The translations under genes were made by a program, and so were the position numbers. Of a DNA stretch of 64,000 nucleotides, positions 6,863-13,554 are shown piece after piece. The notes under the pieces were generated by a model. It did no database searches. It was not told the DNA's origin and saw nothing but the letters and a program-made list of their open reading frames with translations. Positions within the stretch are counted from its first letter, which is position 1. Each line of letters opens with the position of its first letter. Source of the stretch: Stappia indica (GTDB lineage Bacteria; Pseudomonadota; Alphaproteobacteria; Rhizobiales; Stappiaceae); contig NZ_CP046908.1 in assembly GCF_009789575.1 (NCBI RefSeq), positions 372,001 through 436,000 of the forward strand, in the 5' to 3' direction.

Positions 6863-10303
<3,441 letters not shown>

Positions 10304-10533: not shown

Positions 10534-10650
10534 TCAGGCGGTCAGCAGCTCGGCGATGGCGCTGCTCCACAGCAGCATGGTGGTGCCGAACAGGGTCAGT
10601 GCCGCCAGTGCGGCCAGGTCCTGAAAACTATCGCGAAACTCATCGAACAT
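10534..10650 (-). CDS. 38-aa single-pass membrane peptide under a LexA-type promoter
   Basis: A short ORF reading MFDEFRDSFQDLAALAAL, then TLFGTTMLLWSSAIAELLTA, then TGA. An acidic/charged N-terminus of about 11 residues precedes one hydrophobic helix (about residues 12-36). Support for translation: AAGGGAGG sits 6-7 nt before the ATG, and a promoter with a perfect LexA operator lies 53 bp upstream. I know no family by sequence. The size, topology and SOS-type control resemble Caulobacter SidA (29 aa), an SOS-induced inner-membrane division inhibitor; that is an analogy, not homology. It precedes dnaE on the same strand by 230 bp. The alternative is a chance ORF, but the coincidence of RBS, promoter and operator argues against that. 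Confidence 0.65.
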   Translation of the reverse strand: MFDEFRDSFQDLAALAALTLFGTTMLLWSSAIAELLTA

Positions 10651-10697
10651 GGTAGCCTCCCTTGCCCAGGAACTCTCGGTGAACTCTCGATAATTCG

Positions 10698-10726
10698 AGT
10701 ATGTTCATGTTTTGTTCTTTTTGCAA
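10698..10726 (-). promoter_or_regulatory. SOS-type promoter with LexA box in the spacer
   Basis: On the minus strand, -35 TTGCAA (10721-10726), 17-nt spacer and -10 CATACT (10698-10703). The spacer carries GAAC-AAAACAT-GAAC (10703-10717; GTTC-N7-GTTC on the plus strand), an exact match to the alphaproteobacterial LexA operator. LexA bound here would block the polymerase. A CTCGA-TAAT-TCGAG palindrome (10686-10699) follows at the likely start of the transcript. Confidence 0.7.
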
Positions 10727-11121: not shown

Positions 11122-13554
11122 TCAAGGCGCCTTTCGCCGCTCGTCCAGCAGTGATTGCGCATGGGCAAGATTTTGAGACGCGATGCCGTGATAATACGGC
11201 GCTGTCTCGGGCGTCCACTCCTCCAGCGCCAGCCGGTAGGCGGCGAGCGCCTGTTCCAGCCGCGCCGTGCCGGCCTCGCGCGTACCCAACTCTCGCAGCG
11301 CGTTGCCGAGATTGTTCTGCGTCGTCGCCCAGTCGAGCGGCACGCGCTCTCGCGTCCACTCCTCCAGCGCCAGCCGGTAGGCGGCGAGCGCCTGTTCCAG
11401 CCGCGCCGTGCCGGCCTCGCGCGTGCCCAACTCTCGCAGCGCGTTGCCGAGATTGTTCTGCGTCGTCGCCCAGTCGAGCGGCACGCGCTCTCGCGTCCAT
11501 TCCTCCAGCGCCAGCCGGTAAGCGGTGACGGCTTGCTCCAGCCGCGTCGTGCCGGCCTCGCGCGTGCCCAACTCTCGCAGCGCGGTGCCGAGATTGTTCT
11601 GCGTCATCGCCCAATAGAGCGGCACGCCTTCCCGCGTCCATTCCTCCAGCGCCAACCGGTAGGCAGTGGCCGCCTGCTCCAGCCGCGCCGTGCCGTCCTC
11701 GCGCTCGCCCAACTCGGCAAGCGCATTGCCGAGATTGTTCTGCGTCATCGCCCAGTCGAGCGGCACGCGCTCCCGCGTCCGCTCCTCCAGCGCCAGCCGG
11801 TAGGCCTCGACCGCCTGTTCCAGCCGCGCCGTGCCGGCTTCGCGCGTGCCCAACTCTTGCAGCGCAGCGCCGAGATTGTTCTGCGTTGTCGCCCATTGGA
11901 GCGGCACGCGCTGCCGCTTGCGCTCCTCCAGCGCCAGCCGAAAGGCCTCGAGCGCCTGCTCCAGCCGCGCCGGGTCACCCGCGCGCGCGCCTAGGTTCCG
12001 AAGCGCGTTGCCGAGATTGTTCTGCGTCGTCGCCCAGTCGAGCGGCACGCGCTCGCGCGCCCGCTCCTCCAGCGCCAGCCGAAAGGTCTCGACCGCCTGT
12101 TCCAGCCGCGTCGTGCCGGCCTCGCGCGTGCCCAACGTTTGCAGCGCGTTGCCGAGATTGTTCTGCATCATGGCCCAGTCGAGCGGCACGCGCTCGCGCG
12201 TCCGCTCCTCCAGCGCCAGCCGATACGTCTCGACCGCCTGCTCCAGCCGCGCGGTGCCGGCCTCGCGCGTGCCGAGCTCGGCACGCGCGAGGCCGAGATC
12301 GTTCAGCGCCATGCCGCGCTGATCGGCATCGGCAGCAAGGTCGACCGTGTGGCGGGCAAGGGTGATCACCACTTCAAGATCGAGATTGAGCCCCTTGTCG
12401 CGGCCGCGTTGGTACCAGTCGTCCTGGACGGCGCGCAAATGATCGAACAGGCTCGCGCCCTCGGGAAGCTCGATCTCCGCCTTACGGACAAGGCGGGCGG
12501 CAGCGCTCTCGGCATCGCGGCGCAGAAGGTCCTGTTCGATGGCAGCGTCGAGCAGGCGCAGGCTGCGGGCACGGGACTCCTGCCGGCGCTCTTCCAGAAG
12601 GCGGGCTTCCTCCGCCTCCCTGACGAGCGCAGCGTCAATTGCGCTTGCTGCTTCGTCATAGGCGCCGGTGGCGGCGAGCGCGGCGACACGGGCCAGCACC
12701 TCGTCGACAAAGGCACCGAGATTGGAGTCCTGCCGCCCTTCCTGCTGGACGCGAATGGCGATCTCGACAGCGTTTTCCAACTCGCGGAAGGCCTGCTGCG
12801 GGTCGGAAATGTCGGCGGAGATCAGGCGGGCCAGTTCGATCAAGGCTGCGTCGGTGATGCCGCTGGCGCGGGCGGTGGCAACTCGATCCTCCATCGCCGC
12901 AAGCAGGCGGGCCTCAAAACCGGTGAGGTCCTCTCGCGTCGCCATTGTGTCGCGGATCGCTTTGGTATCCTCACGGATCGCGCCGGTGTCCTCCTTGATC
13001 GCTGTCATGCGCTCCAGGAGTTCGCGCCATAGCGACGGACGCAGATCGTCGACGAACTCGGCATCGGCGAGCAGGCGCGCGCAGGCGCGTTCGATCACCT
13101 GCCGCAGAAAGTGGCGAGCGAGTTGGTTGGCGGGGTCCTTCGGGCCCTTGTCCTTGTAGATGTCGGGTCGCGTCGATTCGGCGCGCTCCAGCACCAGCAC
13201 CGCGATCCCGTCTGGTTGCAGGTCCTTGCCGACGAGGTCGGCTGGCGCCGGCATCGCCCGCGGCAGCACGTCGATAAAGGAGGCTTTCGCATGGGCGAGG
13301 TCCCCCATGTCGGTTTGGGACGATCGAGGCACCCAGGCCGCCATCTCGGCCTCGACCTCAAGGGCCGTGCGCTCGATCACGCGCTCAAGATCGCGGCGAC
13401 GGGCGCTCGACAACGCGCCGAACCACGCGCCGCCGGCAAATACCGCCTCGACCGCGCCGGGAAGAACAGGGAGACCGGTTAGTCGTGCGCCCGTCGCGAT
13501 GAGACAGCCGGCGGCCATCTTCACAGCTTCGCGGATCGCGGATTTTTCCCCCAA
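11122..13554 (-). CDS. TPR-type repeat protein with coiled-coil N-terminal region
   Basis: 810 aa if started at TTG 13554 (GGGGG just upstream), or 798 aa from ATG 13518, which lacks a clear ribosome site. Residues 1-75 hold a short hydrophobic glycine/alanine-rich stretch and a basic helix. About 165-240 is a helical region with IREDTxAI-type heptads. About 250-410 is alpha-helical and charged. Residues 414-789 are eight 47-residue tetratricopeptide-like units of the pattern ATTQNNLGNALRELGTREAG, then TARLEQALAAYRLALEEW. A 21-residue cap ends the protein. No P-loop, TIR, caspase or other catalytic motif is visible. The repeat style is that of the sensor ends of NLR-like (STAND) proteins, so a scaffold or sensor role is possible. 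Not a core gene: it interrupts the lolD-dnaE neighbourhood and is flanked by dispersed repeats. Confidence 0.8.
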   Translation of the reverse strand: MGEKSAIREAVKMAAGCLIATGARLTGLPVLPGAVEAVFAGGAWFGALSSARRRDLERVIERTALEVEAEMAAWVPRSSQTDMGDLAHAKASFIDVLPRAMPAPADLVGKDLQPDGIAVLVLERAESTRPDIYKDKGPKDPANQLARHFLRQVIERACARLLADAEFVDDLRPSLWRELLERMTAIKEDTGAIREDTKAIRDTMATREDLTGFEARLLAAMEDRVATARASGITDAALIELARLISADISDPQQAFRELENAVEIAIRVQQEGRQDSNLGAFVDEVLARVAALAATGAYDEAASAIDAALVREAEEARLLEERRQESRARSLRLLDAAIEQDLLRRDAESAAARLVRKAEIELPEGASLFDHLRAVQDDWYQRGRDKGLNLDLEVVITLARHTVDLAADADQRGMALNDLGLARAELGTREAGTARLEQAVETYRLALEERTRERVPLDWAMMQNNLGNALQTLGTREAGTTRLEQAVETFRLALEERARERVPLDWATTQNNLGNALRNLGARAGDPARLEQALEAFRLALEERKRQRVPLQWATTQNNLGAALQELGTREAGTARLEQAVEAYRLALEERTRERVPLDWAMTQNNLGNALAELGEREDGTARLEQAATAYRLALEEWTREGVPLYWAMTQNNLGTALRELGTREAGTTRLEQAVTAYRLALEEWTRERVPLDWATTQNNLGNALRELGTREAGTARLEQALAAYRLALEEWTRERVPLDWATTQNNLGNALRELGTREAGTARLEQALAAYRLALEEWTPETAPYYHGIASQNLAHAQSLLDERRKAP
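11188..12315 (-). repeat. Eight in-frame 141-bp tandem repeats within the TPR gene
   Basis: Eight units of 141 bp (47 codons) in the C-terminal half of the gene. The last two units (starting near 11212 and 11353) differ at one position out of 141, while unit 3 is the most diverged. This pattern indicates recent unit duplication or gene conversion, so copy number may vary between strains. Confidence 0.9.

What the first reader, a model, noticed from the sequence alone, without database searches (positions are those of the whole stretch)
10534..10726. LexA-controlled 38-aa membrane peptide: a SidA-like SOS regulator candidate
A 38-codon ORF with a strong ribosome binding site (AAGGGAGG) encodes a one-helix membrane peptide. 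Its promoter has the perfect alphaproteobacterial LexA operator GAAC-N7-GAAC (10703-10717) placed exactly between -35 and -10. In Caulobacter, tiny SOS-induced membrane proteins such as SidA block division after DNA damage. I recognise no sequence family here, so this could be an undescribed functional analogue in Hyphomicrobiales. It is too short for most gene callers. What is seen: ORF, RBS, promoter and LexA box. What is inferred: SOS induction and a role in division.
Basis: partly seen in the sequence, partly recalled or inferred. Interest (0 to 1): 0.8.

Follow-up and report, generated by a model that had tools for sequence, protein, structure and literature searches.

The report
Divergent SidA-like SOS membrane peptide
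A tiny, easily overlooked membrane protein sits behind a DNA-damage switch in front of the replicative polymerase gene, and it is a distant relative of Caulobacter's SidA, the peptide that halts cell division when DNA is damaged, which suggests that this brake may be much more widespread than its present annotation shows.

Summary
A 38-codon ORF (10650-10534, minus) follows a GAAC-N7-GAAC operator (10717-10703) placed between TTGCAA and CATACT, 17-nt spacer. The frame is under purifying selection (8 synonymous, 0 non-synonymous differences against each of two close relatives). A profile finds the peptide in 86 of 87 genomes of the family. All 15 loci of the first search, the window's included, carry the operator with TTG exactly 9 nt upstream.

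The next gene is the replicative polymerase dnaE1. In Caulobacter and Phenylobacterium the ORF in that place is SidA: 15 of 15 peptides scanned match NCBIfam NF033228. The window's kind and SidA align in register (hhalign E 1.3e-6 without hand-picking, 0 of 60 column shuffles reach the score). A dnaE-anchored survey found the operator upstream in 56 of 110 genomes of the order (about 1 in shuffles) and 14 of 108 others, followed by a small hydrophobic ORF in 51 and 14.

Best reading: a divergent SidA homologue that the curated SidA model does not reach, made when LexA is cleaved and probably blocking FtsW-driven septation. Damage induction and division block are inferred, not shown.

The parts
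10534..10650 (-). 38-codon ORF, one-helix hydrophobic microprotein (SidA-like), ATG to TGA
   Evidence: purifying selection; 86 of 87 family genomes; helix
10656..10663 (-). ribosome binding site AAGGGAGG, 5 nt from the ATG
   Evidence: sequence
10698..10703 (-). -10-like CATACT
   Evidence: sequence; a hexamer in the same place in the 15 loci
10703..10717 (-). LexA-type operator GAACAAAACATGAAC
   Evidence: perfect boxes also upstream of recA and lexA in this genome
10721..10726 (-). -35-like TTGCAA; TTG exactly 9 nt upstream of the operator
   Evidence: 15 of 15 loci; the composite occurs once in the genome
10670..10684 (+). second GAACN7GAAC, opposite orientation, in the 5' leader; seen only in the window and three closest relatives, function doubtful
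   Evidence: L001-L004; not in L005-L015
6863..10303 (-). dnaE1, replicative DNA polymerase III alpha subunit, 230 bp downstream of the peptide's stop
   Evidence: NF004226 1485 bits, cut-off 1002; start codon

Best explanation
The ORF encodes a divergent homologue of the Caulobacter division inhibitor SidA. LexA sits between -35 and -10 and keeps the gene off. RecA-driven LexA cleavage after DNA damage opens the promoter, and a 38-residue inner-membrane peptide is made. By homology it acts on the late divisome (FtsW, possibly FtsN) and holds FtsW/FtsI/FtsN inactive until damage is repaired. Shown here: gene reality, operator, locus conservation, sequence relation to SidA. Inferred: LexA binding, SOS induction, membrane location, FtsW binding, division delay. 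Read-through into dnaE1 is possible (no terminator-like site found in the gap) but open.
For: Coding: synonymous/non-synonymous differences 4/0, 8/0, 8/0 (window against three relatives) and 10/2, 13/4 (between other relatives), five of 14 pairs tested. Distribution: 86 of 87 family genomes, 7 of 7 genera. Operator: 15 of 15, 26 of 30 perfect. LexA circuit in this genome: lexA found with a perfect box about 107 bp upstream; perfect box about 119 bp upstream of recA. FtsW present. Same locus as SidA: in 19 of the 20 Caulobacteraceae genomes searched a dnaE was found, and all 19 have a short hydrophobic ORF just upstream; 15 of 15 such peptides scanned match NF033228 SidA. Literature: dnaE1 is CC1926 (PMC1839093, passage), sidA is CCNA_02004 (PMC10769358, passage), SidA is 29 aa, SOS-induced, acts through FtsW (PMC4211646, passages). 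Homology: hhalign E 6.5e-7 with chosen peptides (0 of 100 column shuffles), E 1.3e-6 with all 51 script-picked order ORFs against all 19 Caulobacteraceae ORFs (score 28.9, 0 of 60 shuffles, largest 12.6). The box goes with the peptide: in two genomes where the peptide is not next to dnaE (L025, L030) the box stays with it and no perfect box lies within 550 bp upstream of dnaE (L190, L257).
Against: No NF033228 match was reported for the window peptide or for any of 27 relatives of A2 at E up to 1; that model passes its cut-off in 0 of 297 genomes of the order. With the first alignments hhalign gave only 24% probability, E 8.5e-4. Perfect GAACN7GAAC is hardly enriched genome-wide (100 against 88). 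54 of 110 order genomes and 94 of 108 others examined lack a perfect forward box upstream of dnaE. In the class search with profile A2 only 7 of 385 genomes matched, and three of the seven loci (L047-L049) show neither box nor dnaE. More distant pairs show weaker constraint (dN/dS up to 0.38). Hydropathy is borderline. I had no expression, interaction or phenotype data for this organism.
Confidence: 0.72

Rival explanations
1. SOS-induced membrane peptide of another kind (TisB/DinQ-like): it depolarises the membrane or slows growth instead of blocking FtsW, and resembles SidA only by being small and helical.
For: Small size, one helix, LexA-type operator; a toxic single-transmembrane SOS peptide, DinQ, is known in E. 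coli (PMC3567139, start of abstract in search listings).
Against: In-register profile match to SidA, the same dnaE1 locus, acidic rather than basic N-terminus. No antisense RNA was looked for.
Confidence: 0.15
2. Cis-acting leader ORF of dnaE1: its translation or the operator serves to tune dnaE1 expression, and the peptide itself does nothing.
For: Mostly directly upstream of dnaE1; no terminator-like site in the gap.
Against: Purifying selection on amino acids; the distance to dnaE varies, for example from some 40-85 bp before the dnaE motif in Caulobacteraceae to 230 bp here; in two genomes the boxed peptide lies away from dnaE and dnaE has no perfect box.
Confidence: 0.08
3. Convergent functional analogue, unrelated to SidA by descent, that occupies the same locus.
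For: NF033228 not reached; identity to SidA is low (13-19% over the aligned columns in hhalign).
Against: Shared spacing [RKQE][DE]xxAxx[SA]xxxF; column-shuffle controls 0 of 100 and 0 of 60; forms from other orders align with the window's kind (E 1.1e-10; 1.3e-8) and, weakly, with SidA (E 1.8e-4; 5.7e-4).
Confidence: 0.1

Closest known systems
SidA of Caulobacter (NCBIfam NF033228, div_inhib_SidA)
   Same: LexA-type operator, one-helix microprotein of about 30 residues, upstream of dnaE1, in-register core [RKQE][DE]xxAxx[SA]xxxF
   Different: 38 aa instead of 29; no match to the curated SidA model; a single forward operator between -35 and -10, whereas Caulobacteraceae mostly have tandem near-operators; FtsW binding untested
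DidA of Caulobacter
   Same: small one-helix membrane protein made after DNA damage that blocks division
   Different: 71 aa and SOS-independent, driven by DriD, binds FtsN (PMC4211646, passages)
YneA / ChiZ / SosA
   Same: SOS- or damage-induced membrane division inhibitors; FtsW the shown (YneA) or predicted target (PMC13396833, passages)
   Different: ChiZ is described there as LysM-domain-containing (YneA too, recalled); no Pfam domain in this peptide; other phyla
SulA
   Same: SOS-induced division inhibitor
   Different: disrupts FtsZ polymerisation (PMC4211646, passage); not a one-helix membrane microprotein (recalled)

Membership tests
SidA (NF033228 equivalog) | score at or above the curated 35 bits | tested here: not met
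   no match for P0001 nor for any of 27 members of A2 at E up to 1; 0 of 297 order genomes over the cut-off, one sub-threshold match inside a 404-residue frame
SidA (broader homologous family) | sequence relation to SidA beyond membrane composition | tested here: met
   hhalign E 6.5e-7 and 1.3e-6 without hand-picking, no column shuffle reaching the score; weaker with the first alignments
SidA (broader homologous family) | LexA operator in the promoter | tested here: met
   by sequence; LexA binding itself not measured
SidA (broader homologous family) | position directly upstream of dnaE1 | tested here: met
   window; Caulobacteraceae 19 of 19 dnaE loci
SidA (broader homologous family) | single transmembrane helix | tested here: inconclusive
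   AlphaFold2 helix, pLDDT 92.9; hydropathy maximum 1.60, borderline; membrane location unmeasured
SidA (broader homologous family) | RecA/LexA-dependent induction by DNA damage | not testable with these tools
   no expression data at hand
SidA (broader homologous family) | binds FtsW and blocks septation | not testable with these tools
   FtsW is present; binding needs an experiment
ChiZ / YneA | LysM domain (ChiZ; YneA: recalled) | tested here: not met
   0 Pfam families
DidA | SOS-independent, DriD-driven expression | not tested
   a LexA-type operator is present, which argues against; no DriD site was sought
type I SOS toxins (TisB/DinQ) | antisense RNA partner | not tested
   no RNA data; not searched

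The most novel reading that the evidence does not exclude
LexA box - SidA-type microprotein - dnaE1 is an ancestral alphaproteobacterial checkpoint module: one damage-opened promoter makes the division brake and, by read-through, raises the replicative polymerase, so that division is held just while replication capacity is boosted. SidA of Caulobacter would then be one fast-evolving tip of a class-wide family that the curated model and probably most gene callers miss.
Probability: 0.35. Interest if true: 0.78.

Novelty: new member of a known kind. Interest (0 to 1): 0.62.

Why it matters
As far as I know, how most Alphaproteobacteria hold division after DNA damage has been worked out only in Caulobacter. 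If the peptide is a working SidA, the answer for a good part of the class lies at one predictable place, upstream of dnaE1, and can be tested there. It also gives natural variants from many genera to map what SidA needs in order to act on FtsW, and ties the division brake genetically to the replicative polymerase.

Tried and rejected
A single-sequence search found the peptide in only 15 of 87 family genomes; the profile raised this to 86. Profile A1 in the order gave 54 of 297 genomes. Profile A2 in the class gave 7 of 385: G000, G121 of the same order, and five outside the order, of which L045 and L046 carry a box and dnaE while L047-L049 have neither and look like chance. Pfam and NCBIfam found nothing for the peptide. 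The generic promoter scan missed the promoter. Counting GAACN7GAAC genome-wide was uninformative. Of 20 own-genome stretches chosen by eye, mostly for AT-rich box spacers, 20 neighbouring ORFs from 15 stretches were scanned: 14 had no hit at E 1e-10; RecA is clear; a partial UvrA match starts some 0.4 kb from its box and a MATE transporter (DinF-like, but below that model's cut-off) lies 62 bp from its box, and both boxes are in the orientation opposite to the gene; the other three (pyruvate carboxylase, acetoin reductase, branched-chain aminotransferase) look like chance neighbours. The second, opposite box (10670-10684) was dropped as a functional claim because only the closest relatives have it. 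Leader-peptide and toxin readings are weighed above.

Not in print? In the open-access library I searched SidA with Caulobacter/FtsW/SOS, LexA/dnaE/Alphaproteobacteria, SidA/Rhizobiales, CC1927/CCNA_02004 and dnaE tags, SidA/small membrane protein/alphaproteobacteria, SidA/dnaE, SidA with Sinorhizobium/Agrobacterium/Brucella and small proteins of S. meliloti. No report of this family outside Caulobacteraceae showed in the listings or in the passages I read; no paper was read whole. Modell 2011, the original SidA paper, is not held, so what it says on homologues is unknown to me.

Survey limits. Order: 121 genomes, 117 with a dnaE hit, 110 examined, the window's own included (7 hits not fetched). 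One search gave 55 with a box and 50 with an ORF; L185 had been read at the wrong place and adds one to each, hence 56 and 51. Class outside the order: 168 of 240 genomes had a dnaE hit, 3 of these in the order; 108 of the other 165 were examined, best DnaE scores first, so not a random draw; one (L345) had only 198 bp upstream. Shuffle controls were mononucleotide; the 4.5% ORF rate was taken on order loci only. Opposite-orientation boxes (11 of 110, 9 of 108) are unexplained. The 20 Caulobacteraceae genomes were picked by me from the 80 loci. (order: sense 54 of 110, antisense 0; class: 14 of 108 and 0; E 0.01) is partly circular, because its profile was built largely from these loci. For one search I chose 33 order peptides by eye: near-identical ones and about 11 of the script-picked ORFs without a clear core (such as L206, L216, L221, L236, L253) were left out, 4 of 14 class ORFs were left out, and several starts were trimmed or set to M by eye, as also. 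One search repeats the test with nothing left out or trimmed; its third shuffle set (order against other orders) crashed, so that pair has shuffles only. My note says 13 of 19 Caulobacteraceae have a perfect box; the right number is 12, 19 of 19 with at most 1 mismatch.

Full report
What is there. On the minus strand a 38-codon ORF runs 10650-10534 with AAGGGAGG 5 nt from its ATG. Upstream, TTGCAA (10726-10721) and CATACT (10703-10698) are 17 nt apart, and GAACAAAACATGAAC (10717-10703) lies in that spacer. The next gene, starting at 10303 and 230 bp beyond the stop, is replicative dnaE (NF004226, 1485 bits, cut-off 1002), not the error-prone dnaE2. A second, oppositely directed box at 10670-10684 is shared only by the three closest relatives.

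Is it more than chance? The box alone would not be: two are found in the window with 1.41 expected, and 100 in the genome against 88 for the reversed control. Conservation settles it. One query found 15 loci in 87 family genomes, the window's own included; all 15 have the box, with TTG exactly 9 nt upstream, and all precede dnaE. A profile found 86 of 87 genomes, in 7 of 7 genera. Of the 30 of those loci that were read, 26 have a perfect box, 30 a box with at most one mismatch, and 30 have dnaE downstream. TTG-N6-GAAC-N7-GAAC occurs once in the 5.1-Mb genome, at this site. Codon changes show purifying selection: 8 synonymous and 0 non-synonymous between the window and each of two relatives, 10 against 2 and 13 against 4 between other relatives (14 pairs were tested, and in the most distant the ratio rises to 0.38).

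LexA in this genome. lexA is at G000:C1:356403-357116 and a perfect box lies about 107 bp upstream. recA has a perfect box about 119 bp upstream. So the operator type fits the organism's SOS circuit. Less telling: a partial UvrA match and a MATE transporter also lie by perfect boxes, in the opposite orientation. This is inference from position; no binding was measured.

A family tied to dnaE1. To avoid choosing loci by the peptide, I anchored on dnaE. Of 117 order genomes with a dnaE hit (121 searched), 110 were examined: 56 have a perfect forward box within 550 bp upstream, against about 1 in shuffles, and 51 of these have a 24-60-aa hydrophobic ORF starting 10-110 bp behind it, against 4.5% with shuffled sequence behind the box (one row corrected). 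Outside the order, 14 of 108 examined have the box and all 14 the ORF. In the order survey TTG stands exactly 9 nt upstream of 30 of 59 boxes, in the class survey of 2 of 14, so the promoter layout is shared less widely than box and ORF. Two genomes carry the boxed peptide away from dnaE (L025, about 1.6 kb off by the coordinates; L030, on another contig), and their dnaE loci have no perfect box. The box therefore goes with the peptide.

The link to SidA. Caulobacter's SidA is a 29-aa SOS-induced inner-membrane protein that blocks division through FtsW (PMC4211646, passages). sidA is CCNA_02004 (PMC10769358, passage) and dnaE1 is CC1926 (PMC1839093, passage); that the two are neighbours was my recollection, and the genomes bear it out. 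I took 20 genomes (19 named Caulobacter or Phenylobacterium, one named only Proteobacteria isolate CAULO1) from the 80 loci of a PopZ search; 19 gave a dnaE hit (the miss is a Caulobacter vibrioides MAG) and all 19 have a short ORF upstream, of the general type M[IV]R[IVL]ARESLALVSVxxFVWMMCxVAQLVA. All 15 of these peptides that I scanned match NF033228, SidA (71.5 and 71.6 bits, cut-off 35, for the two shown in full). 12 of the 19 have a perfect box, and 19 of 19 have a box with at most one mismatch, mostly two or three in tandem 16-18 bp apart.

Are they related? The SidA model gives no match for the window's peptide nor for any of 27 relatives, and passes its cut-off in 0 of 297 genomes of the order, while it does in the Caulobacter vibrioides control. 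Profile against profile, 33 chosen order peptides and 11 SidA peptides align in register with E 6.5e-7 and score 26.0; 100 column-shuffled versions reach 15.3 at most. Because I had chosen those peptides by eye, I repeated the test with all 51 script-picked order ORFs and all 19 Caulobacteraceae ORFs, untrimmed: E 1.3e-6, score 28.9, 60 shuffles reach 12.6 at most. Peptides of other orders align well with the window's kind (E 1.1e-10; 1.3e-8) and weakly with SidA (E 1.8e-4 and 5.7e-4; no shuffle reaches either score). With the first alignments the match was weak, probability 24% and E 8.5e-4. The shared spacing is [RKQE][DE]xxAxx[SA]xxxF.

How it most likely works. LexA would cover the spacer and the edge of the -10, so RNA polymerase is excluded until RecA triggers LexA cleavage. 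The peptide, helices 2-27 and 29-37 by AlphaFold2 (pLDDT 92.9), would enter the inner membrane; its hydropathy maximum of 1.60 is borderline. [quoted passage not shown] the authors favour a model in which it holds FtsW/I/N inactive (PMC4211646, passages). A 2026 study of YneA predicts, without high confidence, that SidA packs against TM7 of FtsW (PMC13396833, passages). FtsW is present here. By homology I give about 0.7 that this peptide delays septation in the same way. The induction, the target and the phenotype are not shown.

Known or new. It is not a member of the NF033228 equivalog as curated, since the cut-off was tested and not met. It is best filed as a divergent homologue in a broader SidA family, at the same locus and under the same kind of control. 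I found no description of that wider family in the library searches named under Tried and rejected, but the original SidA paper is not held.

Noticed in passing
11211-12308: Tandem array, 141-bp unit, 7.8 copies, 86% matches, inside a long minus-strand ORF (11122-13554, 810 aa). 47 residues per unit would suit a repeat protein.
   Followed up: no
L160-L178: Caulobacteraceae mostly carry two or three near-LexA boxes in tandem, 16-18 bp apart, before sidA, unlike the single forward box in the window.
   Followed up: partly
550 bp upstream of dnaE in the survey loci: Opposite-orientation boxes (GTTCN7GTTC on the coding strand) in 11 of 110 and 9 of 108 genomes, where shuffles gave about 1 forward box per 110 loci; unexplained.
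   Followed up: no
L034, L035, L036, L038, L041: In one genus the SidA-like core ends an open frame of 109-118 residues, with boxes 265 and 320 bp before the core: a long N-terminal extension or a different start.
   Followed up: no
G000:C1:4129129-4129143 (L289): Perfect box 62 bp from the start of a MATE transporter gene, DinF-like but below that model's cut-off, box orientation opposite to the gene; dinF is SOS-regulated in E. coli (recalled).
   Followed up: partly
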